From a virus: a stretch of 64,000 nucleotides of DNA. The stretch covers positions 1-64,000 of the IMG/VR virus record IMGVR_UViG_3300033150_002410, one strand, 5' to 3'. The notes under the pieces were generated by a model. That model saw nothing but the letters and a program-made list of their open reading frames with translations. It had not been told where the DNA came from and made no database searches. This document shows positions 1 to 64,000 of the stretch, in pieces. Position numbers and translations under genes: made by a program. Position 1 is the first letter of the stretch. Every line of letters starts with the position of its first letter.

Positions 1-1
1 C

Positions 2-289
2 AAGGAACTTATTTATATAGGAAGTCAATATCCTATTTGTTCTGTTATGAGAACGAGAAAATTTATAAAAAGAGGGTGGAAAATTAATGCCGGGCAGTAT
101 TTGAAGATGTTATTTCAGGTAAGTGAACTGAATCTTAAAGATATAAATGTTCTTAAAGAACAGCTAATTGGTGTAGATACTACTTATTTCATGATGTTAA
201 TAAATGCATTAGAAAAGAAGATAGAAGATGATAATGCTTTTGAAATTGACACTGAATATATTTGTAGTATTATAGATAAGATTTTTTAA
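2..289 (+). CDS. Hypothetical protein, 3' part only
   Basis: The reading frame is open from the left edge of the window, so this is the C-terminal part of a longer protein. An internal ATG at 47 has no Shine-Dalgarno sequence before it and is probably not the start. The visible part is basic at first (RTRKFIKRGWK) and then acidic and helical; I recognise no motif. It lies directly upstream of the Y-RNA-like element and the TROVE gene, but nothing in it shows a link to them. Confidence 0.55.
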   Translation, partial: KELIYIGSQYPICSVMRTRKFIKRGWKINAGQYLKMLFQVSELNLKDINVLKEQLIGVDTTYFMMLINALEKKIEDDNAFEIDTEYICSIIDKIF

Positions 290-296
290 GTTGATT

Positions 297-360
297 TCGG
301 GCCGTGATTGTAGGATTATCTTGTCATAAAGATATTCCCCTACAATGTTTATTTGCCCGA
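297..360 (+). ncRNA. Y-RNA-like hairpin upstream of the TROVE gene
   Basis: Seen: an outer stem TCGGGC (297-302) pairs with GCCCGA (355-360). An asymmetric internal loop follows (CGTG on the 5' side, GTTTATTT on the 3' side). An inner stem ATTGTAGG (307-314) pairs exactly with CCTACAAT (339-346), and a small ATCTT/AAGAT hairpin closes the top. Known: Y RNAs bind Ro60/Rsr through a basal stem that carries a short GG-CCG 5' strand and a UUG-containing 3' strand with a bulge and internal loop; this element shows the same layout and similar letters. The next gene is a TROVE protein, the Y RNA partner. Inference: this is the phage Y RNA. It has no promoter of its own that I can see. Confidence 0.55.
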
Positions 361-375
361 TATTTCAGGAAATTA

Positions 376-443
376 AGCGGGTCGGAGTTCGAGATTTATC
401 AATAGTTACCGACTTAACTATTCTCGGACAAACCTAACCCGTT
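376..443 (+). ncRNA. Possible tRNA-like fold between Y-like RNA and TROVE gene
   Basis: A 7-bp acceptor-like stem, AGCGGGT (376-382) with ACCCGTT (437-443), encloses CGAG (390-393) / CTCG (423-426). Stacked on that is a perfect 8-bp stem AATAGTTA (401-408) / TAACTATT (415-422). The six-base loop CCGACT can also pair with GTCGG at 381-385, a possible pseudoknot that would compete with the outer stem. Some bacterial Y RNAs (YrlA) carry a tRNA-mimicking module, and this may be its counterpart, although here it lies 3' of the Ro-binding stem rather than inside it. It could instead be a translational control structure, since it ends about 10 bases before the TROVE ribosome binding site. Confidence 0.35.
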
Positions 444-466
444 ATAAATTTATGGAGGAATATAAA

Positions 467-2041
467 ATGAATTACAGAGAGCATTTTAATATTAGAAAGG
501 TTTCGCAGAGTGAGCCTATACCGGGAAAGGAAATGGTTCGTAATAATGCTGGGGGTTATACTTTCAAAGTGGATGTTTGGAAGAAATTACATCGCTTCCT
601 GATTCTCGGTTCGGAGGGAGGTACTTATTATGTTTCTGAAAAGAAACTGACTGTAGATAGTGCAAAGACAGCTTTGTCTTGTATAGAAGAAGACTGGCTG
701 AGAGTAATAGATATGGTACTGGATATTAGTGAATCAGGAAAGGCTCCAAAGAATGATCCGGCTCTTTTTGTCCTGGCTATGTGTTCGTCTGCTGCAGATG
801 AAAAGGTAAGAAAGAAGGCTTTGGAAGTTCTTCCTAGGGTAGCTAGGATTGGTACTCATCTTTTCCACTTTGCAGAATATGTCGAAGGCTTCCGGGGATG
901 GGGAAGATCCCTTAGACGAGCAGTTGCAAATTGGTACTTGGATAAATCTGTAGATGACTTATCTTATCAGCTTATAAAGTATCAAAGCAGAGACGGCTGG
1001 AGCCATAAAGATTTACTGCGTCTTTCACATCCAAAGACAAAGGAAGAAGAAAAGAACAATGTTTTCCGTTGGGTGACGAAAGGAGATGTTTCTCTGACTG
1101 AGTTGCCACTGCTTACATACGCTCACGAAAAGGCAAAGAAAGCAACTACTTCAGAAGAGATTATTTCTTTGATTGAGAAATATAGTCTCCCTTGGGAAGC
1201 TATACCTACTCAATGGTTGAAGAATGCTGACGTGTGGATATCTTTGTTACCCAAACTTCCTCTTACTGCAACAATAAGAAATCTAGGAAGAATGTCTTCC
1301 TTAGGGATTTTAAATCCTTTAATGGCAGGTGAGGAACTTGTTATAAAAAAGCTTAACAAGGAATACATCCATAAGTCCAGGTTGCATCCTTTGTCAATAT
1401 TGATAGCCTTGAAGACGTATAAAAGGGGTCATGGTTTGAAAGGTAATTTGACATGGACACCTAATGGCAGAATAGTGGATGCTTTGGATGAAGCTTTTTA
1501 TTTAGCATTTGATAATGTAGAGGCTTCTGGAAAAAGGATTATGTTTGCTCTTGATGTATCAGGATCAATGAGTTGGGGTACTATTGCTGGTTTACCTATT
1601 ACTCCGAAAGAAGCATCAGCTGCAATGGCTCTTATATCTGCAAAGGTCGAACCAAATTATATGACGTTTGCCTTTAGTAATGAGTTTGTACCTGTAGATA
1701 TTTCACCTCGACAAAGGCTTGATGATGTGATAAGGAAAATGAAAGAGATAGGTTTTGGTGGCACGGATTGTGCTCTTCCTATGATATATGCATTAAAGAA
1801 TGAGATACCTGTGGATGTATTTGTAGTCTATACTGATAATGAAACATGGGTTGGAGAAACGCATCCTGTCCAAGCTTTAAATGAGTATAGACAGAAGATG
1901 AATATTCCTGCAAAGTTAATAGTTGTAGGGATGATGGCAACGGATTTTAGTATAGCAGATCCAGACGATGGGGGGATGCTTGATGTAGTGGGTTTTGATA
2001 TAGCAACCCCGCAAATAATGCATGATTTTATTCTACAATAA
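467..2041 (+). CDS. rsr: TROVE / Ro60-like RNA-binding protein (Rsr)
   Basis: A 524-aa ring protein of the Ro60/TROVE family, expected to bind Y RNA on its outer face and RNA 3' ends through its central hole. The N-terminal two thirds are alpha-helical (HEAT-like). The C-terminal third is a von Willebrand A domain with an intact metal site: DVSGSM at residues 363-368, Thr433 in FGGTD and Asp457 in YTDNE. An earlier in-frame ATG at 452 overlaps the GGAGG at 454-458, so ATG 467, eight bases after it, is taken as the start. The length fits the family. Known roles in bacteria are RNA quality control, and rRNA degradation together with PNPase. The upstream Y-RNA-like hairpin supports the call. A role for it in phage infection is not established. 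Confidence 0.9.
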   Translation: MNYREHFNIRKVSQSEPIPGKEMVRNNAGGYTFKVDVWKKLHRFLILGSEGGTYYVSEKKLTVDSAKTALSCIEEDWLRVIDMVLDISESGKAPKNDPALFVLAMCSSAADEKVRKKALEVLPRVARIGTHLFHFAEYVEGFRGWGRSLRRAVANWYLDKSVDDLSYQLIKYQSRDGWSHKDLLRLSHPKTKEEEKNNVFRWVTKGDVSLTELPLLTYAHEKAKKATTSEEIISLIEKYSLPWEAIPTQWLKNADVWISLLPKLPLTATIRNLGRMSSLGILNPLMAGEELVIKKLNKEYIHKSRLHPLSILIALKTYKRGHGLKGNLTWTPNGRIVDALDEAFYLAFDNVEASGKRIMFALDVSGSMSWGTIAGLPITPKEASAAMALISAKVEPNYMTFAFSNEFVPVDISPRQRLDDVIRKMKEIGFGGTDCALPMIYALKNEIPVDVFVVYTDNETWVGETHPVQALNEYRQKMNIPAKLIVVGMMATDFSIADPDDGGMLDVVGFDIATPQIMHDFILQ

Positions 2042-2934: not shown

Positions 2935-3029
2935 AAGGCCTGGCTCCGTTGGAGAAGGGCCTTGAACGTCTGTAGATGGGGGCTTTAGTTGGATGAGCAG
3001 CCGACCGCTCTCGAGGTCGGCACTATTTT
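2935..3029 (+). other. Structured intergenic RNA with tRNA 5'-half look and terminator-like hairpin
   Basis: Three elements follow each other. First, AAGGCC (2935-2940) pairs with GGCCTT (2958-2963) around a CTCC-GTT-GGAG hairpin. Second, GCTT-loop-GAGC (2982-2998) with TTGG in the loop looks like a tRNA D-arm. Third, a perfect 7-bp GC-rich hairpin GCCGACC/GGTCGGC (3000-3021, 8-nt loop) follows and leads into ACTATTTTTA. The third piece could be a weak rho-independent terminator, or a distorted anticodon arm. No T-arm is present, so this is not a complete tRNA. An ATG at 2993 inside it is not used as a start here. Confidence 0.4.
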
Positions 3030-9167: not shown

Positions 9168-10112
9168 ATGGTTGGTTTTATTAGATTGGTTACAGAAAAA
9201 TATGTTTCATTGAGTGATGCTAAGAAAAAAGTTCTCAGAAGGAAAATGAAAAATGTAAGGATAAAATATCCGCACGCAATTGAGCTTAAGCTTACTAAAT
9301 TATTGATAGAATATAACAAAAAACTTTCCTTATCCTTGATGAGATGGATTGAAAACAATGAAAAAAGATGGAACAGAGATTCATGGGAAAATGAAATTCT
9401 GGTACATTTGAATATATACTTTGAACAGGAACTAGAGACTATGTTAAATGATCCTAAAGTTATAGGAATAGATATTCAGAAACAGGTTGAAAAGTTATTC
9501 ATTTTGCTTTATTCGTTCAATAAGGCTCAATTCATGAAAATAATAAAAGATATTTTGGGTGAATCTTATTATGGTTCGGAGATGTGGTGGGATAATTTGA
9601 GAAAACAATGGAATAAAGTTTTTTATGAAAGAACCAAAAAAGTTGCTTATGGATTTGTAGATAAGATAAAAGATATTATCTATAAAGGGATTCAGAAAAA
9701 CAGAGAGTTTAGTGAAATACTTTCTGATATTAAAAAGGCTAATAAAACATTTACTATTAAAAAGGCTAATTTTATAGCAAGAGACCTTATCGGTTCCGCT
9801 AATAGTCTTTTTCAGAAAAATATGCACACTTCTATAGGCATAGATATGTATACATGGCAAACAATGGTAGATGAAAGAGTTAGAGGAAGGCCTGGTGGAA
9901 AATATCCTACTGCTGTACCTAGCCATTGGGCTATGGAAGGTTTAGTTTGTTCCTGGTATGATCCTATTGTATATTCCGAGGATGGAATGGTATGGAAACA
10001 TAGAACAAGTTTGATGCCAAAAGCTCAGGTTGGTGAGGAATATGCTTGCAGGTGTTTACCGGTGCCTTATTTTGCAACAATACTTAATCAAATAGATAGG
10101 GGGTTAATATGA
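9168..10112 (+). CDS. Head morphogenesis protein (Mu gpF / SPP1 gp7-like)
   Basis: 314 aa, ATG after AAGGA. The N-terminal 200 residues are helical. The C-terminal domain has the family's features: KKANFIARDLIGSANS, then YTWQTMVDERVRGR, and a closing AQVGEEYACRCLPVPYF with the conserved CRC. These minor head proteins are built into the prohead with the portal and assist early assembly or DNA ejection. It overlaps the next gene by four bases. Confidence 0.8.
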   Translation: MVGFIRLVTEKYVSLSDAKKKVLRRKMKNVRIKYPHAIELKLTKLLIEYNKKLSLSLMRWIENNEKRWNRDSWENEILVHLNIYFEQELETMLNDPKVIGIDIQKQVEKLFILLYSFNKAQFMKIIKDILGESYYGSEMWWDNLRKQWNKVFYERTKKVAYGFVDKIKDIIYKGIQKNREFSEILSDIKKANKTFTIKKANFIARDLIGSANSLFQKNMHTSIGIDMYTWQTMVDERVRGRPGGKYPTAVPSHWAMEGLVCSWYDPIVYSEDGMVWKHRTSLMPKAQVGEEYACRCLPVPYFATILNQIDRGLI

Positions 10113-10303
10113 GTAAATTACCAAGAGAAGTTATAGACTTGATAGAGGAAAAAGCTAAAGAAATACCGTATGGAAATATACACATTGAACTGAATGAAAG
10201 TGGTAATTTTGTAGATGTTATTATTTCACAGAGAATAAGAGTTATGAAGAATGTCAAGCCCAGACCTGGAATGGTATATTCTAATGTTCAGCGCATGGGG
10301 TAG
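10109..10303 (+). CDS. Small DUF2292/YezD-like protein, 64 aa
   Basis: The core IEEKAKEIPYGNIHIEL followed by NFVDVIISQRIR matches the small DUF2292 pattern (a helix, then YGS/N-V/I-x-I, then a strand ending in IEK/RIR). Members are common near head genes in phages, with unknown function. It is coupled to the preceding gene through ATGA. Confidence 0.55.
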   Translation: MSKLPREVIDLIEEKAKEIPYGNIHIELNESGNFVDVIISQRIRVMKNVKPRPGMVYSNVQRMG

Positions 10304-17135: not shown

Positions 17136-20100
17136 ATGCCTGCTGGAATATCTGAAGAATATGTAGTTACATTAAAAGCTCAAGTTTCTAATGCCATAAA
17201 ATCTTTGCGTTTATTTGAAAAGGAATTAGATAAATCTGTAGATAAATCCGGTAAGGGAACCGGGGATATTGAAAAACAAACAAAAAAGATGTCTTCCAAT
17301 GTAGTCCGCTATATTGGAAGCATAGCTCAGGCCTACGTAGGCATGAGAACCTTAATTGAAGGTATTGATTTCAATGTGTTTATTGAAAAAAATAGAGTTG
17401 CTTTTGGTGTAATGTTGAGAGACATTGATTATGCCAATCAAAAGATACGTGAGTTGAGAGATTTTGCTTTAACGATTCCTTTTACATTTAAAGAAGTAGT
17501 AGCCGGCGCCAGACAGTTATTAGCCTATGGTTTCGCTGCTGAGGATCTTACGAAGAACTTAAGAATGTTGGGACAAGTTTCTTATGCTCTATCCATTCCT
17601 CTTGGTGATTTGATATACATATATGGTACATTAAGAAGCCAGAACCAGGCTTATGCCAGAGATTTAATGCAATTTGGTATGAGAGGTATTCCAATATACA
17701 AATCTCTTGCAGAAATTCTTAATGTCAATGAGAAACAGATAAAAAAGATGGTAGAACAAGCAAAGGTTGGTTTCAAAGATGTTGAAAAAGCTTTTATGTA
17801 TATGACAGGTAAAGGCGGACAGTTTGAGGGTATGTTGCAGAAAGCTATGGAAACTTTCATGGGAATGAGCAACATATTGAAAGGTGTTCTACAAATATGG
17901 CTTGGTGCTCTTACTGAAGGAATATTTGAATCGTTGAAAGAGGCTATTGCTAATCTTATTACTATTTTTAAGACCAGTGAGCAGTCTGCCAGAAAGTTTG
18001 GTAATGTCATAGGAACTATTTTCAATAATGTAATAAACACTTTTCTAGGATTACTTACTGTTCTCAGTAAAATACCTCCATCTATATATATAATAGTCAC
18101 TGCAATGATAGGAGGCTACGGATTAACGAAGGCTATAGCTGCTATTGCTTCTTCTCTGCATTTGTTAAAAGGAGCATTTACATTATTCTCTCCTCAAGGA
18201 ATGATAATTGCCGGGCTTAGTGCTGCTTTGGTATTGATTACAAGTATTATAGGAAGGATAAGACAAGCAAAAATAGAAGCTCAAAGAGTAGCTGAAGATC
18301 TCGGAAAAGAGTTGAAAAAAAGCTTGTTAATGGAAGGACAATATGGAGCTGTAGCCGGTGTTTCAAAAAAGATATATGAATGGGGAAAAAGAACAGGAGA
18401 ATGGGATAGGGTATTAGAAACGGCAGAAAAGATAGCCAAGATAGAGGAGCGAATAGTTGAAATAGAGGAGATTCGTCAAAGAACGGGTCTTTTTGCCGGG
18501 CCGAAAAAGAGGGCCCTTGAAAATATATCTGCTTTTATCAAGGCGGTAACTGATTATCAAGATAAACTCAGAGAAACAGTAAATTTACATAAAGCTGCAG
18601 GAAAGAGTGTTGAAGATTTCGGTTATGTATTACGTCTAGCCCTGCAAAATATAGGGAAAGATGCCAGTCGTGTGAAAAAAACATATTATGAGGTGTTCAA
18701 AGCAGCAGAGAAAATAATTCCGGAAGAAGAAATGAATCAAATCAATGAGTTGAGTGATAGATTAAGCTTACTCACTCAGAGATATGATCTACTTTCTGAA
18801 AGGATGAAAGAAGGTACCAAGGAAAGTAGAGTTGTTATAGAAAGGGAACTAGGAGCCACGAAGGATAATATAGAGGATACTTTGGGGGCTATTTTTGAAT
18901 TGTTCAGGAAATATGGCGCTGATACTTCTTATTTATATGAGGAAATAAGGAAACTGGAAGAAGCATTAGTTGGTGTTGTAGAAGGAAAAGCTTTTCCGGA
19001 GTGGGCTAAGTGGGTAGAAGATACTTTAAAAGTGCCAATTGAGGAGTTTCGCAGGACTTTGGATTCTGGAGAAGTTCGTTATTTAGGAGCCTTAGCAGGA
19101 AAGATATTTGTTACACCATTGGAAGATAGTGTAGAAGCATCAAAGAAATTATCTGGTGTTCTGGGTGAAAATACGGTATATGTTGAAACGATGCAAAAAG
19201 CCGTAAGCCTGGTAAGAGATATGCTCCTTCAAATGGTTTCTGCAACTGATTCTTTAGGCAGAAAAATGTTCAGTTTTGAAAAGGTTTTTGATAAGGAAGG
19301 GAATCTGGTAAGATATGGAGATAGAATTGTAGATGTACTGGTCAGATTTTACTTGAAATATAAACAGGTACTTGATACCTTGCAGGGGGATAATGAAGAG
19401 GCAGCGGAAAAATGGTTGGATGATTGGACAAAATCATTCGATAAATTCTGTGATAATTATAAACAATATGTAGCAGAACGTACCGGTACAGAAATTCTAT
19501 TAGAAAGAGGAAAACAAGCTGTTCTTGCCAGAGAAATATCGGAGATGACAAAAGCTCAATTTGAATTGGCAAAGAAATATATCATGGAAAAGTATGGTAT
19601 AGAAGTTCAGAACGCGGAAGATTTACACAGATTACTTATGGATATGTTGAGAGAAGAATATGATTACAGGGAAAGGATGATCAGGTTGGAAAGGGAACAA
19701 GCTGCAGGTGATATACTTGAAGCAATAGGAAAGAGAAACAGGTATGAACAAGCATATATAGATTTATTGAGAGAAAGATTACAGTATTTAGTAGAGTCTA
19801 ATATTTTATCACAAAAGGAACTGGATAATTACGTTGCCATTATGGCCAGGCAAAGAGATATAGATGAGGAAGTCAAAGCTCAGCAGATAATTTTCAATAT
19901 AACTAAAGATAGAGAGAAACTTACCAGAGCTGAATTGGAAATAGAAAGATCAAGGTTACAGTATCTTGTAAGTGAAAACAGATTAACACAAGAACAATTG
20001 GATATGTATATAGAAATACTCAATGTTGAAAAACAGAGAGAGGAAATAAGAGCCAAAGCTTCACGATATGAAGAAATGAAGGGTGGGGATCCTCTGTATT

Positions 20101-39759: not shown

Positions 39760-39948
39760 TTACACCCCTCTGTTCTTCTTATTACACTCATTACAAACAT
39801 AATAAGCATCTTTATCTATTTCATCATTTTTTATTTCTTCAATTGTGAAACCAAACTGTTCCATTTTGTAATCTAGTTCTTCAATATTATCAGCATCTAT
39901 TTCAATCACTTTGCCACAAAATACACAAGAAATTGCGTAATACATCAT
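39760..39948 (-). CDS. Small zinc-ribbon-like protein, 62 aa
   Basis: It has CVFCGKVIEI near residue 8 and YVCNECNKKN near residue 52, a two-knuckle zinc ribbon enclosing an acidic helix. The start overlaps the polymerase stop (ATGA). Its position between polymerase and clamp loader suggests a small replisome accessory, but no function is known. Confidence 0.55.
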   Translation of the reverse strand: MMYYAISCVFCGKVIEIDADNIEELDYKMEQFGFTIEEIKNDEIDKDAYYVCNECNKKNRGV

Positions 39949-42515
39949 TCTTCACCTATAAAACCATATTCTTCTATACTAGCTAAAGATCCATTTATCT
40001 TTGTTTTCGACTTTTTCATTTTTAAAGGAACCACAATCCAGGGCCAATCCTTTTTTATCTTTTGTGTTCCATAAAAATGAACAAGTTCATCTATTTCATT
40101 TTCTTCTTCTGGTAATGCATCAAACATTATTTCATCATGAATCTGTCCAATTATCTTAGACTTCATACGTCTCTTTTCAATTACTCTCTGGACATCAATC
40201 AAAAGCTTCAATAAACAATGAAAAGCTGATCCCTGAAATGGATAATTAAATATTTCATTCTTCCCCAGTGGAAATCTGTATTTGAAATTAGTCAATGATT
40301 TTATATAACCATCCCTCTCATATTCCTTGATCTTCTCTCTTTTATATTTATAATAGCCCCTGAAATCTTCTAACCAGAATTCCTTTTCAATCCTTTCAAT
40401 ATGAATCATGAAATCATAAATATTTATTATCTCTTTACTCTTCAAATGTTCTTTAATTTCTTTACTTATACCATTCCAGATATTGACAGATATATTTTTC
40501 CAATAATCACCATAAAATTCCGGAAATACAAATTGATTCTTAGCCATATATCGAATTTCTGCTGTTATTTTTTCTTTCGGTAATAAAAATATTTTTTCTG
40601 CCTGATCTCTGTGCATATCTTTATTATCATCAAAAAGATAATCAATAAGCTTTTCATCCTTCGAGTAACAAGCAGCCATGGCTACTTCTATTCCAGAATA
40701 ATCATAAGCTAAAATTATATTACCTTTTGATGGAATTATAATATCTCTTATTCTCTTTCCTATTTCCTTTTCCTTTTTCGGTATATTCTGAATGTTCGGG
40801 CTATTGGAAGAAGAACGATATGTCTTAACATTAAATAAACTAAAAAATGGATATATCTTTCCCCCAATTATTTCTCTTTTGTATTGTTCAATGTAGGTAT
40901 TTTTCGCTTTTTCCCATTCCCTATAATTCAACAAATCTTTTGCAAAAGGATGTTTTATTTCCTGTAATACTTCTTTATCTATACTTTCTTTCCCCTTTGC
41001 TGTGTATTTGATTGGTTTTATTTCTAAAATGTCAAAAAACACCTTTTTCAAATGTATAGGTGAGTTTATATCAAATTTCTTCCCCTCCCAGTTTGCTATA
41101 AAATCATAAGAAAATATTTTTTCATGATATTCATTGATTTTATCTGAAATCTCGTTTGCCACTTTATTCATCTTATCATCATCAATACAAATCCCGTTAT
41201 ACTGAACCTTAGCCAAAGCATTAGCTCCTTCTGTCAGGAAAAATAATCCTTTTTTCAGATCATCATCAATTAATTCTTCATATTTCTCTTTCAATTTATA
41301 TGTAAAATAAGAATCAAGAGCACAATAATATAATAAATCTTTTATTGGAGCAGAATCCAGTCTATTAAAGGCATTAGCGCCATACCTTTCCTCCTCTTCT
41401 CTAGTTGCTGTCATATATTTATCAATAACACTATCATAATTCAGCTCACCAAATTTAACATATACAAGATATTTTAAATTATTTGGTTTCCTGTTATTAT
41501 AACAATGCGCCATCAGGATAGTATCATATTTCAGATTATTTATCCAAATACCTAATCTTGCTTTAGTCCATACCTGTTCAAATGAAATATTATGAGCTAT
41601 TTTCTCTGAATTATTACTCAACAAAGATTTTAATTTTTCCTTGAACTCAATACCATCAAAAAATGGAAAAGCATAAGATTTCTCACCATTTGAAAAAGAA
41701 AGACAAAGAATCTCCTGTCCTCCCCTTTGTGGTTTTCTGCCAGTAGTCTCATAATCCAAAGCAAATAAATTCCAAGTACCGATTTCATCTAACCAGACAA
41801 CAGCCTTGTTTTCGTCTGTTGTTGTTTCTATCTTATCCAAGTAATCAACAACAGGAAAATCTCTATTTAAATAAGTCAAACCCTCCTCTATATTCTTTTT
41901 CCACATATTCATTATAATTGATCCATCCGCATCTTCCAAACTTCTCAAAATGGAGGATGGATGATATATAGGGACAATCCAACAACCGAGTTCCTGATCG
42001 GGAATAAAAGAACCAGTCCAATTTCCGAATCTATCCTTCTTACCCGTAACATTTGCTCTTCCTTTTAATCTATAACCTATAACAGCATCAAAAGCTATAC
42101 TTCCTATCAGGAATATTAATTTTGGCTGTAAGTCTCTTATTTCTTTCTTTAAATATTTTCTGCAAGCATTTATCTGAACTTTGGTAGGTGTCTTATTTCC
42201 GGGAGGACGACACTTCACGGCATTTGTAACAAAACAATCTCTATCGAATATTATATTAAACTCTTCAAAAACCTCTCTCAAAAACTTACCGGTCTTTCCA
42301 ACAAACTGTATTCCTTTTTTATCCTCCTGTTCTCCGGGAGCCTCTCCTACAATCATTATTCCTTTTCTGCCATAACCGGAAAATTTCATTTTTGGAAAAG
42401 TACAAGATTTATAAAGGCCACAATCCTGACAAGTAGAAGCCTTATCATGTTTTCTACTATCGTTATTTGATATTTTAAGAGAAAAGTCCATGGCTTTAAA
42501 AAAAGACTTGTTCAT
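39945..42515 (-). CDS. Family A DNA polymerase fused to family 4 uracil-DNA glycosylase
   Basis: 856 aa in three domains. Residues 25-215 are a family 4 UDG: Fe-S/zinc Cys (CQDCGLYKSC), GEAPGEQED and IYHPSSILR. Residues 230-425 are a DEDD exonuclease: FALDYETTG, IAHNISFEQ and YYCALDSYFTYK. Residues 430-856 are the polymerase: motif A ILAYDYSGIEVAM, motif B region EIRYMAKNQFVFPEFYGD and motif C IGQIHDEIMFDA. It is the phage replicative polymerase. SPO1 polymerase has the same UDG-type extension. The UDG may excise uracil at the fork or read a modified base; whether it is active is unknown. Confidence 0.9.
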   Translation of the reverse strand: MNKSFFKAMDFSLKISNNDSRKHDKASTCQDCGLYKSCTFPKMKFSGYGRKGIMIVGEAPGEQEDKKGIQFVGKTGKFLREVFEEFNIIFDRDCFVTNAVKCRPPGNKTPTKVQINACRKYLKKEIRDLQPKLIFLIGSIAFDAVIGYRLKGRANVTGKKDRFGNWTGSFIPDQELGCWIVPIYHPSSILRSLEDADGSIIMNMWKKNIEEGLTYLNRDFPVVDYLDKIETTTDENKAVVWLDEIGTWNLFALDYETTGRKPQRGGQEILCLSFSNGEKSYAFPFFDGIEFKEKLKSLLSNNSEKIAHNISFEQVWTKARLGIWINNLKYDTILMAHCYNNRKPNNLKYLVYVKFGELNYDSVIDKYMTATREEEERYGANAFNRLDSAPIKDLLYYCALDSYFTYKLKEKYEELIDDDLKKGLFFLTEGANALAKVQYNGICIDDDKMNKVANEISDKINEYHEKIFSYDFIANWEGKKFDINSPIHLKKVFFDILEIKPIKYTAKGKESIDKEVLQEIKHPFAKDLLNYREWEKAKNTYIEQYKREIIGGKIYPFFSLFNVKTYRSSSNSPNIQNIPKKEKEIGKRIRDIIIPSKGNIILAYDYSGIEVAMAACYSKDEKLIDYLFDDNKDMHRDQAEKIFLLPKEKITAEIRYMAKNQFVFPEFYGDYWKNISVNIWNGISKEIKEHLKSKEIINIYDFMIHIERIEKEFWLEDFRGYYKYKREKIKEYERDGYIKSLTNFKYRFPLGKNEIFNYPFQGSAFHCLLKLLIDVQRVIEKRRMKSKIIGQIHDEIMFDALPEEENEIDELVHFYGTQKIKKDWPWIVVPLKMKKSKTKINGSLASIEEYGFIGEE

Positions 42516-60686: not shown

Positions 60687-62363
60687 ATGGAAAAAAAGAA
60701 ATGTATTATTTGTGGGGAAGAAAAAGAAAATGTATGGTCAACAGATTCAGGTAATGTTTGTTCTAATTGCCTAGTGTATCGGCTAGATTTGGACGTTGAT
60801 TCTGCTGGTAGATTTATAAAGTGTGAACTATGCAAAAGTATTGTCGTTTCTAAAAAGGATCATTTCTATAAAGAAATATCCGTATGCAAAAGAAGAGGTA
60901 GAAATATAACAATATCAAGTGAGAAAGTGGTTCTTTGCCAATCTTGTTATGAGAAAAAAACTGCAGAGTGTAGGCACTGCAAAAGAAGATTTTTCATAGA
61001 TAGGGACTTGTTTGCTGTTGCAGGGGAAGATTGTTATATCTGTTTGCGCTGTTTCGATATACACAAATACTTCATTTGCATGATATGCAATGGGGTATAT
61101 TCAAAGAGACACATGCAGGATATTGATAATAGAGTACAAAATGTATGCAAAGAGTGCTTTTCGGAAAACTACAAAAAATGTAGTCAATGTGGACGTTATT
61201 ATGTGGAAGAGTATATGTATTACGTGAGCAACAGATACCAAACAGAAGAGAGGATCTTCTGTAACGATTGCTTTTCACGTCTCTGCTTCACATGTGAACA
61301 TTGTAATCATAATTACATGATCGAGAACCGGATATTAACAGTGCGTGGGGCTCCAATATGCGCGTGCTGTTATGAAGAAGATTATTTCACGTGCGAAGGG
61401 TGCAACAATGTATACAGACGTGAAGAAGTAGCTGGCGATCACCAGAGTGGCAGTATCTTATGTGTCAATTGTTACGATGATCGCGTACAAGAGATACATG
61501 AATATTCATATTTCCCCCGAGTCGGCGTAATTTTCCACCAAACAAACAGTGAAAAAGAAAAAGAAAATCTTCTCTATCTCGGTGTAGAACTTGAAATAGA
61601 TGACGGAGATAGAGAAGACGTAATAGGAGAGCTTCTCTATTATGCAGATGATGAAAAGTTTTTCTATATGAAACACGATGGCTCTCTCTCGGTTGATGGA
61701 ATTGAGCTATGTTTCCAACCGCGTTCTTTGCAATCATGGTTTGAATGTAGAGAAAAAATAGAAATGTTATTCTCATATCTAACAGCATCAGGATACAGGT
61801 CTCATAATTCTTGGTGTGGTCTACATATTCACGTGAACCGTAACTTTTTCAGTACTGCTTCAAAAAGAAGAAATAGAGCTTATGTATATAGACTAATGTA
61901 TATATTTGAACGGCACTGGAAAGACCTTGTCAAGTTTTCACGGAGAAGTGATGAAGCTATCTCTTCTTATTGCGGTAGATATCTCTATGATAGTGAGAGT
62001 GAGATAAAAAACAATACACATTATGAAACTGTAAAAAAATTATTGAGTGCAAGTAAGGGTAAATACTTTGCCGTGAATGATCTACATAGAGATACTGTTG
62101 AGTTTAGGCTGTGGAGAGGATCATTGAATGTAGAAACATTCTATGCGACGTTAGAGCTAACTTCTAATATTTGTGAAGTAGCAAAAAATTTAAAGACCAG
62201 TGAAATTTCTAGTCTGGAATTTTTGGACTTACTTCTTCTTCATTCTGAATACGAGGATCTAAAAAGCTATTGCAGAAGAAGAGATATATTTTTTCGTGAA
62301 AAGAATTACAATAAGAAAAGAAATAAGAAGAATAATAATAATAAACAAGGGGAGAAGAAATGA
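60687..62363 (+). CDS. Amidoligase with N-terminal zinc knuckles
   Basis: 558 aa, AAGGAG before ATG. Residues 1-265 hold many CxxC pairs (CIICGEE, CSNC, CELC, CQSC, CRHC, CLRC, CMIC, CSQCGRYY, CEHC, CEGC), a string of zinc ribbons. Residues 290-520 are an Amidoligase_2 domain of the glutamine-synthetase-like fold: LYLGVELEIDDGD, MKHDGSLSVDGIELCFQPRS, NSWCGLHIHVNRNFFS and YFAVNDLHRDTVEFRLWRGS. It is predicted to join a carboxylate and an amine using ATP. A class II glutamine amidotransferase lies 0.6 kb downstream, a known pairing. Basic C-terminus. The zinc array may hold protein or nucleic acid substrate. Confidence 0.82.
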   Translation: MEKKKCIICGEEKENVWSTDSGNVCSNCLVYRLDLDVDSAGRFIKCELCKSIVVSKKDHFYKEISVCKRRGRNITISSEKVVLCQSCYEKKTAECRHCKRRFFIDRDLFAVAGEDCYICLRCFDIHKYFICMICNGVYSKRHMQDIDNRVQNVCKECFSENYKKCSQCGRYYVEEYMYYVSNRYQTEERIFCNDCFSRLCFTCEHCNHNYMIENRILTVRGAPICACCYEEDYFTCEGCNNVYRREEVAGDHQSGSILCVNCYDDRVQEIHEYSYFPRVGVIFHQTNSEKEKENLLYLGVELEIDDGDREDVIGELLYYADDEKFFYMKHDGSLSVDGIELCFQPRSLQSWFECREKIEMLFSYLTASGYRSHNSWCGLHIHVNRNFFSTASKRRNRAYVYRLMYIFERHWKDLVKFSRRSDEAISSYCGRYLYDSESEIKNNTHYETVKKLLSASKGKYFAVNDLHRDTVEFRLWRGSLNVETFYATLELTSNICEVAKNLKTSEISSLEFLDLLLLHSEYEDLKSYCRRRDIFFREKNYNKKRNKKNNNNKQGEKK

Positions 62364-62590
62364 CAAGAGAAGAAGAATTAGAAAAGGTTCTGGAAGAAGC
62401 AGAGTCTTGTCCATATTGTGGACAAGAAAACTGTATGGGAGTTCTTGAATATCCGGAGGATGCCGAGGGTGTCTGGCACGTCTGGTGGGGTCAAGGACGC
62501 GGTGGTGAGTTTTGCGATAAGCATTTACACATGCTTGCTCAGACAGGAGCTTATATTTATAGCTGCTGTTGGGAACGGTTTGAGGATTAG
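62360..62590 (+). CDS. Small Cys-rich protein, 76 aa
   Basis: Coupled to the amidoligase stop by ATGA and preceded by GGGGAGAAG. It has EEELEKVLEEAESCPYCGQE, then GEFCDKHL and YSCCWERF; probably binds zinc. It resembles the 74-aa protein at 62678 in order and spacing (acidic helix, CPY, later FCDK or YCDR), so the two may be duplicates. Its TAG stop is also the first bases of the tRNA-like element that follows. Confidence 0.6.
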   Translation: MTREEELEKVLEEAESCPYCGQENCMGVLEYPEDAEGVWHVWWGQGRGGEFCDKHLHMLAQTGAYIYSCCWERFED

Positions 62591-62633
62591 CCATGGCCGG
62601 TGTCTGCTCCGGTTCAACTCCGGAGCATGGCTA
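62588..62633 (+). ncRNA. tRNA-like minihelix A (acceptor stem + T-arm)
   Basis: TAGCCATG (62588-62595) pairs perfectly with CATGGCTA (62626-62633). A bulge GCCGGTGTCT follows on the 5' side. The 7-bp stem GCTCCGG/CCGGAGC (62606-62612, 62620-62626; one G-C base is shared between stems) carries the 7-nt loop TTCAACT, a perfect T-loop (TTCRANY). GGT in the bulge could mimic the D-loop G18-G19 that contacts the T-loop. There is no anticodon arm and no CCA. The first three bases are the TAG stop of the gene before. This is the shape of a minimal RNase P substrate. Confidence 0.6.
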
Positions 62634-62635
62634 TA

Positions 62636-62651
62636 GCTTGTGTATGCAAGC
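62636..62651 (+). repeat. GCTTGT/GCAAGC hairpin after element A
   Basis: GCTTGT-GTAT-GCAAGC: a 6-bp stem with one G-U pair and a tetraloop, two bases after the tRNA-like element. A matching hairpin follows element B. No T-run, so not a terminator. Confidence 0.65.
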
Positions 62652-62677
62652 AGAAAATCTGATGACGGAGGGAAATA

Positions 62678-62902
62678 ATGGACGAAGAACTATTGAACGA
62701 AGAATTATCTAAAATTAAATCGGGCAATTGCCCGTACTATGACCATGTTTGGAAGTCTTCCGGTTTGTCATGTTCGCCGTTCAGCGGTGGATGTAACTCG
62801 GGAGTAGACGAAAACGGCAACGTCTATTGTGATAGACTTATTGCCAAATCTCTCAACAACAAGGAGAAATATAAAAACAAAGTAGAAATTCAGCAAAAGT
62901 AG
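62678..62902 (+). CDS. Small Cys-rich protein, 74 aa
   Basis: GGAGGG before ATG. MDEELLNEELSKIKSGNCPY, then LSCSPFSGGCNSG and VYCDRLIAKS; likely metal-binding or disulfide-bonded. Possible paralogue of the 76-aa protein just upstream. As there, its TAG stop is the start of a tRNA-like element. Basic tail KNKVEIQQK. Confidence 0.6.
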   Translation: MDEELLNEELSKIKSGNCPYYDHVWKSSGLSCSPFSGGCNSGVDENGNVYCDRLIAKSLNNKEKYKNKVEIQQK

Positions 62903-62948
62903 CCGTCTTGGTAGCTTAAGGCCCAAGTTCGATTCTTGGGCACGGCTA
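62900..62948 (+). ncRNA. tRNA-like minihelix B (acceptor stem + T-arm)
   Basis: TAGCCGT (62900-62906) pairs with ACGGCTA (62942-62948). The bulge CTTGGTAGCTTAAG contains TTGGTA, as in tRNA D-loops. A 7-bp stem GCCCAAG (62921-62927) / CTTGGGC (62935-62941) carries TTCGATT, a textbook T-loop. The two stems abut on the 3' side, as acceptor and T stems do in tRNA. Stem sequences differ from element A by paired changes, so structure is conserved rather than sequence. TAG is again the stop of the preceding gene. Confidence 0.65.
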
Positions 62949-62951
62949 TAC

Positions 62952-62967
62952 GCTTGTGTACGCAAGC
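62952..62967 (+). repeat. GCTTGT/GCAAGC hairpin after element B
   Basis: GCTTGT-GTAC-GCAAGC, differing from the hairpin after element A by one loop base, and at the same distance (three bases instead of two) from its tRNA-like element. Confidence 0.65.
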
Positions 62968-62997: not shown

Positions 62998-63723
62998 ATG
63001 TGCATAATTGTAGCAAAAAAGAAAGGTATTGAATTGCCAAGTGAAAATGTATTAGAGAATTGTTTTGAAAACAATTTTCATGGTGCAGGAATTGCGATTG
63101 CTGTTGGAACGAACGTTCATGTTTTCAAGGGTCTGATGACGTGGGAAAGGTTCCGAAGAACGCTTAATCTCATAAAAAAGAAAATCAATTTGAAGGATCA
63201 TGCTGTTGCAATGCACTTCCGGATTGCTACTCACGGAAGTGTTATCGAGCAGAACACTCAACCGTTTCCTGTCTCTGATGACATGGAATATCTTACGAAA
63301 GTGAGATATACGGCGAAAAATGTATTACTTCACAATGGTTTTTTCTCTTCTTTGTTCTCTTATATTAATTGCAAGGAATATGACGTCTCTGATACTTTAT
63401 TATTCACAAAGAGTATAATATATCCGTTATCAGTGTTGGATCCTACTCTGGAGAGAAAAGAGACTGTAGAAATTATCAGATCAACAATAGGAAGCTCCAA
63501 GATTGCAATTCTTAAATACACTGGAGATTTTCTACTGTTTGGAGATTTTATAGAAGATGAAGGGATCTATTACAGTAACACGTCGTATATGGAAACTTTG
63601 AATTATTATGATGATAATTTCAAGCTTTATAAAAAGTATAATGAGAAGAAAAGTAGGAGAAGAAAATATAGAGATTATTACAGTAATAGTGTAACGAAAG
63701 ATTATTATGATTATGATGATTGA
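62998..63723 (+). CDS. Class II glutamine amidotransferase-like protein
   Basis: 241 aa, GGGAG before ATG. After Met1 is removed the nucleophile is Cys2 (MCIIVAKKKGIELP), as in Ntn-type glutaminases. NNFHGAGIAIAVG and KDHAVAMHFRIATHGSVIEQ with NTQPFPV, then NVLLHNGFFSSLF, follow the YafJ/GAT-II core (N and G of the oxyanion site). The later part carries TIGSSKIAILKYTGDFLLFG. It would release ammonia from glutamine or cut a gamma-glutamyl amide, partnering the amidoligase. Acidic/basic tail of low complexity. Confidence 0.8.
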   Translation: MCIIVAKKKGIELPSENVLENCFENNFHGAGIAIAVGTNVHVFKGLMTWERFRRTLNLIKKKINLKDHAVAMHFRIATHGSVIEQNTQPFPVSDDMEYLTKVRYTAKNVLLHNGFFSSLFSYINCKEYDVSDTLLFTKSIIYPLSVLDPTLERKETVEIIRSTIGSSKIAILKYTGDFLLFGDFIEDEGIYYSNTSYMETLNYYDDNFKLYKKYNEKKSRRRKYRDYYSNSVTKDYYDYDD

Positions 63724-63753: not shown

Positions 63754-63975
63754 ATGGAGAAAACAAAGTTAAAAGTAAAAAAGAAATTATATGTGAATGT
63801 ATCTTATCAGAGAAGAAGGTATAGAGTATATGTTACTGTATGTAGCAATAGTTATATAATTTCCAGCTACTCTATATCTTTTAGTAGAGAAAGACAAGTG
63901 AGAAGGTTTCTTGTTTCTCTTAGAAGAATACAAGAAGATAAAAGCAGAACAGCTAGGAATATAGCTTGCTGTTAG
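63754..63975 (+). CDS. Small basic protein, 73 aa
   Basis: AAGGAG before ATG. It is very rich in Arg, Lys, Tyr and Ser (KLKVKKKLYVNVSYQRRRYR, FSRERQVRRFLVSLRRIQED), a likely nucleic-acid binder. The last codons and the TAG stop lie inside the hairpin of leader repeat copy 2. The next gene would begin beyond the window. Confidence 0.5.
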   Translation: MEKTKLKVKKKLYVNVSYQRRRYRVYVTVCSNSYIISSYSISFSRERQVRRFLVSLRRIQEDKSRTARNIACC

Positions 63976-64000
63976 CAAGTTAGAAATAAAAATAATAATA
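63962..64000 (+). repeat. 38-bp leader repeat, copy 2
   Basis: Hairpin GCTTGC-TGTTA-GCAAGT and the tail TAGAAATAAAAATAATAA, matching copy 1 at 60631. Reaches the right edge of the window; by analogy a further gene of this cluster should start about 20 bases past it. Confidence 0.7.

What the first reader, a model, noticed from the sequence alone, without database searches (positions are those of the whole stretch)
62588..62967. Two stop-codon-linked tRNA-like minihelices between small Cys-rich genes
Elements A (62588-62633) and B (62900-62948) share a design: a closing stem starting TAGCC, a 10-14 nt bulge with GGT, a 7-bp stem with a perfect T-loop, direct stacking on the 3' side, then a GCTTGT/GCAAGC hairpin. 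Their stems differ by paired changes, so the fold is kept. In both, TAG is the stop codon of the gene before. Coaxial acceptor/T-arm helices with a bulge are the classical minimal RNase P substrate. Inference: host RNase P (or RNase Z) cuts the polycistronic mRNA here, or terminating ribosomes control folding. A wilder idea is that they are carriers for the nearby amidoligase.
Basis: partly seen in the sequence, partly recalled or inferred. Interest (0 to 1): 0.88.

Follow-up and report, generated by a model that had tools for sequence, protein, structure and literature searches.

The report
tRNA-like linkers between phage genes
Several small phage genes are joined by a short RNA that folds like the elbow of a tRNA, kept by evolution in at least three phage genomes from two unrelated lineages, probably as a signal for cutting, protecting or handling the shared messenger RNA.

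Summary
A (62588-62633) and B (62900-62948) are 7+7-bp coaxial minihelices with a perfect tRNA T-loop, a one-sided bulge holding GGT, and a following hairpin. They belong to a family of 13 copies. The window's phage (69,946 b, ends repeated) has four, two of them beyond the window. A 140-kb phage of another lineage has five. A related 64-kb phage has four, two of which lost the outer helix. All copies follow an ORF, run in the genes' direction, and lead to the next ribosome-binding site. Covariation is strong: 8 of 14 pairs change on both sides (0/500 shuffles reach the covariation score). All 13 loops fit TTYRAYT.

Three claims weaken. TAG is the stop codon in only 5 of 13 copies. Elements occur in phages with no detectable amidoligase. 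RNase P cleavage is possible but unproven: the helix is 14 bp, not 12, and no CCA follows.

Best reading: a tRNA-elbow-mimicking intercistronic RNA linker, most likely a processing or handling site for host tRNA-maturation enzymes. The fold is well supported; the mechanism is inferred.

In passing: the phage encodes Ro60 with Y-RNA-like RNAs about 2.3 kb past the array. The sister phage lost Ro60 but kept Y RNAs and elements.

The parts
62588..62633 (+). Element A: tRNA-elbow-like minihelix; stop codon TAG of the 76-aa gene is its first three bases
   Evidence: R1 56 bits
62636..62651 (+). 3' hairpin of A, GCTTGT-GTAT-GCAAGC
   Evidence: paired changes across copies
62900..62948 (+). Element B: tRNA-elbow-like minihelix; TAG stop of the 74-aa gene is its first three bases
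   Evidence: R1 66.6 bits
62952..62967 (+). 3' hairpin of B, GCTTGT-GTAC-GCAAGC, followed by TAAATTTTT
62360..62590 (+). 76-aa Cys-rich protein, 73% identical orthologue in G003 also followed by an element (E)
62678..62902 (+). 74-aa Cys-rich protein; orthologue in G003 (76%) is NOT followed by an element
62998..63723 (+). class-II glutamine-amidotransferase-like protein (weak match), downstream of B
   Evidence: Pfam GATase_4 E 7e-4, below cut-off
60687..62363 (+). amidoligase-like protein upstream of A (not linked to the elements in other phages)
   Evidence: Pfam Amidoligase_2 6e-7; no hit in G003/G004
63964..63980 (+). hairpin-only copy GCTTGC-TGTTA-GCAAGT, overlapping the stop of the 73-aa gene, no minihelix
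60633..60649 (+). hairpin-only copy GCTTGC-TGTTG-GTAAGT, no minihelix; weak

Best explanation
A and B belong to a family of intercistronic RNA linkers that mimic the elbow of a tRNA (coaxial acceptor/T-arm helix, T-loop, D-loop-like GGT bulge) and usually carry a second hairpin just upstream of the next ribosome-binding site. Shown: the anatomy, the covariation, the constant orientation and place between genes, and the spread to three genomes of two phage lineages. Inferred: they act as RNA in the polycistronic message, and host tRNA-maturation enzymes (RNase P, possibly RNase Z) recognise the elbow and cut there. The upstream message would then keep a structured 3' end, and the downstream message would begin close to a protective 5' hairpin: a phage version of tRNA punctuation. 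Ribosomes that terminate at or just before the element would compete with its folding.
For: Eleven full-length copies align to one structure with 8 of 14 pairs changed on both sides, 17 such cells, and 0/500 shuffles reaching the covariation score or the percentage paired; sliding the partner by one column drops pairing from 89% to about 40-44% (which includes one weak extra row). Copy J in G004 was found independently with a model built from the other phages (30.8 bits, E 5e-6). All 13 loops are TT[CT][AG]A[CT]T although the stems vary freely; GGT or GG is kept in the bulge of nearly all. All 13 are co-oriented with the flanking genes, in at least four separate clusters, with 71-116 nt from element start to the next start codon in the 12 measured. 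Stacked acceptor and T stems with a T-loop are what bacterial RNase P contacts (PMC11221534); phage RNAs, intergenic RNAs and mRNAs are known RNase P substrates (PMC11143913).
Against: No RNA data exist. The distance from T-loop to helix end is 14 bp, not the 12 bp measured by RNase P, and the 3' flank is TATA, TGTA or TGTATT, not RCCA. Copies M and N in G004 have lost the outer 3' strand; C, D, H and I carry mismatches. G004 puts a leader motif without a minihelix at most junctions, so the minihelix is not needed at every junction. Orthologous genes differ in having an element or not.
Confidence: 0.38

Rival explanations
1. The elements are structured intercistronic RNA linkers that are not cut by RNase P/Z: they stabilise the 3' end of the upstream cistron, insulate translation of neighbouring genes, or are RNase III sites as in phage T7 early mRNA.
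For: A 14-bp stacked helix with a one-sided bulge plus a second hairpin between genes; hairpin-only junctions in G000 and minihelix-free leader motifs in G004; placement from stop codon to Shine-Dalgarno.
Against: Does not explain why the loop is TTYRAYT in all 13 copies and why GGT is kept in the bulge.
Confidence: 0.27
2. They are DNA-level repeats: recombination or mobile linkers by which small genes are shuffled between phages; the RNA fold is a leftover of a tRNA fragment.
For: An operon with elements is shared (73-88% aa) by two phages with no detectable common capsid, portal or terminase genes; synteny breakpoints coincide with element edges, gene order is swapped, and tandem duplications occur; repeats run a few bases into the coding end (CAGCAAAAG before B and C).
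Against: Always co-oriented with the genes and never inside or antisense to them; paired changes keep the RNA fold; mosaic breakpoints usually fall between genes anyway. Outer ends show no integron-type core sites (sequence inspection).
Confidence: 0.2
3. The elements are Y-RNA-like (YrlA) modules that bring the phage's Ro60 protein or PNPase to the message.
For: The phage encodes Ro60 with Y-RNA-like RNAs about 2.3 kb beyond the array; bacterial YrlA carries a tRNA-like domain (PMC8394870).
Against: No Ro60-binding stem in the elements; no Rfam YrlA match even at lax thresholds; G003 has lost Ro60 but keeps intact elements E and F; no elements found in two other Ro60 phage contigs.
Confidence: 0.07
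4. They are chance folds or decaying tRNA pseudogenes without function.
For: Copies C, D, H, I, M and N have mismatches or deletions.
Against: Paired changes, 0 of 300 shuffles, retention in diverged phages.
Confidence: 0.06

Closest known systems
Minihelix substrates of bacterial RNase P and natural RNase P sites in phage and operon mRNA (M3 RNA, C4 RNA, T4 gene 32, intergenic RNAs)
   Same: Stacked acceptor/T helix with T-loop and no anticodon arm; lies in phage or intercistronic RNA
   Different: 14 bp not 12; no RCCA; repeated as a family of linkers in one phage group; cleavage not shown
tRNA punctuation in mitochondrial polycistronic RNA
   Same: tRNA-like units between genes, stop codon at or next to the unit
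   Different: No anticodon arm, no decoding; phage; processing not shown
YrlA bacterial Y RNAs
   Same: tRNA-like T-loop/D-loop module; a Ro60 gene in the same phage
   Different: No Ro60-binding stem; sits inside mRNA; kept where Ro60 is lost
RNase III sites of phage T7 early mRNA
   Same: Intercistronic hairpins with a one-sided bulge
   Different: T-loop consensus and GGT bulge are kept here, which RNase III does not need

Membership tests
tRNA | Anticodon arm and cloverleaf that decodes a codon | tested here: not met
   ARAGORN finds no tRNA in window or L037; its one call over copy F is a 93-nt tRNA-??? that takes in upstream coding sequence; no anticodon arm in any copy
tRNA | T-loop consensus TTYRANY closed by a stem | tested here: met
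   All 13 copies TT[CT][AG]A[CT]T
Bacterial RNase P substrate (minihelix type) | Coaxial acceptor and T stems with T-loop | tested here: met
   7+7 bp direct 3' stacking in A, B, F; covariation
Bacterial RNase P substrate (minihelix type) | 12 bp from T-loop to the cut and G+1-C72 | tested here: inconclusive
   Helix runs 14 bp; the 12th pair is G-C in A, B, E, F and G-U in C, but not a G-C pair in D or G (sequence inspection)
Bacterial RNase P substrate (minihelix type) | 3' RCCA | tested here: not met
   3' flank TATA/TGTA/TGTATT in the full-length copies
Bacterial RNase P substrate (minihelix type) | Actual cleavage | not testable with these tools
   No RNA data
YrlA / Y RNA | Basal Ro60-binding stem | tested here: not met
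   Absent in elements by inspection; no Rfam Y RNA match at the elements
YrlA / Y RNA | Goes with a Ro60 gene | tested here: not met
   G003 keeps five elements but only the last ~22 codons of Ro60
Intrinsic terminator | G+C-rich hairpin followed by a U run | tested here: not met
   Only B is followed by ATTTTT; the others are followed by AGAA or similar
Integron attC cassette site | RYYYAAC / GTTRRRY core sites at the outer ends | tested here: not met
   Outer ends are TAGCC/GGCTA or TAGTCA/TGGCTG (sequence inspection)
Rfam family | Match above the gathering score | tested here: not met
   None in window; lax scans give only T-arm fragments of tmRNA

The most novel reading that the evidence does not exclude
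A new family of phage RNA elements: anticodon-less tRNA-elbow mimics that serve as standard linkers between small accessory genes, recruit host tRNA-processing machinery to cut phage messages, and travel with gene modules between unrelated phages that also carry Ro60/Y-RNA loci.
Probability: 0.3. Interest if true: 0.78.

Novelty: new variant of a known kind. Interest (0 to 1): 0.6.

Why it matters
If the elements are cut, a virus of bacteria uses tRNA mimicry as punctuation in its own messages, which would give a natural, testable case of mRNA processing by tRNA enzymes in bacteria. Even without cutting, a covarying tRNA-elbow motif kept as a gene linker and exchanged between unrelated phages is a structured RNA family that Rfam lacks, close to a phage Ro60/Y-RNA locus. 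The finding makes concrete predictions: mapped RNA ends at the outer stem, and pseudouridine-55 or m5U-54 in phage mRNA.

Tried and rejected
Amidoligase relatives by peptide patterns in viral contigs: none found. Hairpin-only pattern in viral contigs: 35 hits, chance palindromes with no T-arm family. The element's 3'-half pattern in 84,980 bacterial/archaeal genomes: none. Elements in 42 other capsid relatives: no full-length R1 match. A structural descriptor on five of them gave one perfect but differently placed helix in G011. Relatives of the 76-aa protein and of the MKYSF family: only the same 140-kb phages. Host by prophage search: no relative found. DNA similarity of element A or its operon in named phages: none of note. 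Amidoligase carrier: rejected, because elements occur without amidoligase. TAG-stop as a rule: rejected, 5 of 13. Ro60 dependence: rejected by G003.

Full report
OBSERVATION. The sequence is as described. A and B each fold into a 7-bp outer stem, a one-sided bulge (11 and 14 nt) holding GGT, a 7-bp inner stem and a T-loop (TTCAACT, TTCGATT), with direct stacking on the 3' side, followed by a 6-bp hairpin. They differ from each other by four paired changes. Fold z-scores are -3.3 and -3.4. A strict descriptor finds A and B only, and nothing in 300 shuffles. ARAGORN and Rfam call nothing. A has an alternative outer pairing of similar energy, and the bulge of B can itself pair.

THE GENOME. The window is bases 1-64000 of a 69,946-b virus record. 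Its ends share an 81-b direct repeat, so it is probably a circularly complete genome although it is classed as linear. The phage has terminase, portal, capsid and a family-A polymerase. Its closest named relatives by capsid are about 36-38% identical, and the host is unknown.

MORE COPIES. Beyond the window lie C (G000 67600) and D (68043). A pattern of the 3' half hit only three near-identical 135-140-kb contigs in 2.9 million viral contigs. A covariance model from seven copies finds five in each of them. A capsid relative (G004, 64 kb, 74-b end repeat) carries J, found independently at E 5e-6, plus K, M and N. That gives 13 distinct copies. No full-length match was found in 42 other capsid relatives or, by pattern, in bacterial genomes.

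CONSERVATION. On the 12-row model alignment (11 full-length copies and one weak extra row), 8 of 14 pairs change on both sides, 88.9% of cells pair, and 0/500 shuffles reach the covariation score; sliding by one column gives 40-44%. That alignment is fitted to the model, so the figure leans towards the structure; before fitting, seven copies gave 4 pairs changed on both sides, with 3/500 shuffles reaching the score. The hairpin also shows paired changes at two positions, with weaker statistics. The loop is TT[CT][AG]A[CT]T in all 13. GGT or GG remains in the bulge of nearly all. M and N have lost the outer 3' strand.

PLACE AND ORIENTATION. Every copy follows an ORF in the same direction and precedes the next start by 71-116 nt (12 measured). 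TAG is the stop in A, B, C, J and M. The stop lies inside the element in K and H, and 5-23 nt upstream in D, E, F, G, I and N. E, the orthologue of A after the orthologous 76-aa gene, has its stop 8 nt upstream. The TAG link is therefore what a stem that begins TAG would give by chance, not a rule.

MODULE EXCHANGE. G003 shares five genes of the operon (73-88% aa) with the window's phage but has no capsid, terminase or portal match. Gene order differs, and the joins fall at element edges. Elements come and go at orthologous junctions: after the 74-aa gene G000 has B and G003 none; after the 77-aa gene G003 has F and G000 none; after the 189/194-aa gene only G003 has a copy. G004 also uses a leader motif CCCAGGGTTAAGGG..AAGGAG at about ten junctions, four of them with a T-arm. 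The minihelix is thus one part of a linker that runs from stop codon to ribosome-binding site.

MECHANISM. The loop and GGT bulge are the parts of a tRNA that form the elbow, and they are the best-kept parts here. Proteins that read the elbow without an anticodon include RNase P, RNase Z and T-loop modifying enzymes (established knowledge). RNase P contacts stacked acceptor and T stems, and the rest of the tRNA is dispensable for binding (PMC11221534); it measures 12 bp from the T-loop and accepts phage and intergenic RNAs (PMC11143913). Here the helix is 14 bp with a G-C pair at position 12 in A, B, E and F (G-U in C), and there is no CCA. Cutting is therefore plausible and unproven. If cut at the stem, the downstream message would start close to the hairpin, which could protect its 5' end. 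Non-cutting linkers, RNase III sites and DNA-level shuffling remain open.

Ro60. The phage encodes Ro60 (452-2041). Just upstream lie two Y-RNA-like folds: 293-363 matches, below its cut-off, a nematode sRNA family (that these are stem-bulge RNAs, relatives of Y RNAs, is my own knowledge; fold z -4.7), and about 377-443 (z -3.9). A third, at G000 about 66604, follows a TTGACT-17-TATAAT promoter-like site. Because the genome closes on itself, Ro60 lies about 2.3 kb past element D. G003 keeps the two upstream RNAs but only the last ~22 codons of Ro60, with elements E and F intact. So the elements do not need Ro60.

VERDICT. The element family is real and its fold is under selection (high confidence). 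The processing mechanism is the leading but unproven reading (0.38). The stop-codon rule and the amidoligase idea fall.

Noticed in passing
window 452-2041 (+): Ro60 (TROVE + vWA) gene; related 'Ro-like' proteins are annotated in many actinophages.
   Followed up: partly
window 293-363 and about 377-443 (+); G000 about 66604-66665 (L037 4604-4665): Three Y-RNA-like folds; the first two lie just upstream of Ro60, the third forms the 5' leader of the operon with elements C and D behind a strong sigma-70-like promoter.
   Followed up: partly
L052 15180-15265 (G003 135180-135265): Ro60 gene deleted except its last ~22 codons, while both upstream Y-like RNAs are kept with sequence changes.
   Followed up: partly
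window 1-81 and L037 7866-7946: 81-b direct terminal repeat: the record is probably a complete circular genome though classed as linear; the same holds for G003 (66 b) and G004 (74 b).
   Followed up: yes
L037 4451-4528 (G000 66451-66528): Degenerate full-length tRNA-like gene, 28.2 bits against a cut-off of 29.
   Followed up: no
L060 (G004 46001-64357, minus strand) and G004 about 28.1 and 29.1 kb: Motif CCCAGGGTTAAGGG before the ribosome-binding site at about ten gene junctions, with or without the T-arm.
   Followed up: partly
L111 about 18130-18560 (minus strand; G011 38.1-38.6 kb): Non-coding cluster with an odd class-II tRNA-like gene and a perfect T-loop minihelix; no Rfam match.
   Followed up: partly
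L057 2500-3000, L058 2500-3000: Upstream of other phage Ro60 genes, halves of tRNA-like sequences seem to flank Y-like stems.
   Followed up: no
L045 about 9980-10250 (minus strand; G001): Promoter-like site followed by a structured tRNA-like leader RNA upstream of an operon.
   Followed up: no
window 39945-42515 (-): DNA polymerase A fused to an N-terminal uracil-DNA-glycosylase-like domain.
   Followed up: no
window about 2935-3025 (+): Non-coding stretch with GC-rich inverted repeats between small genes, possibly another structured RNA.
   Followed up: no
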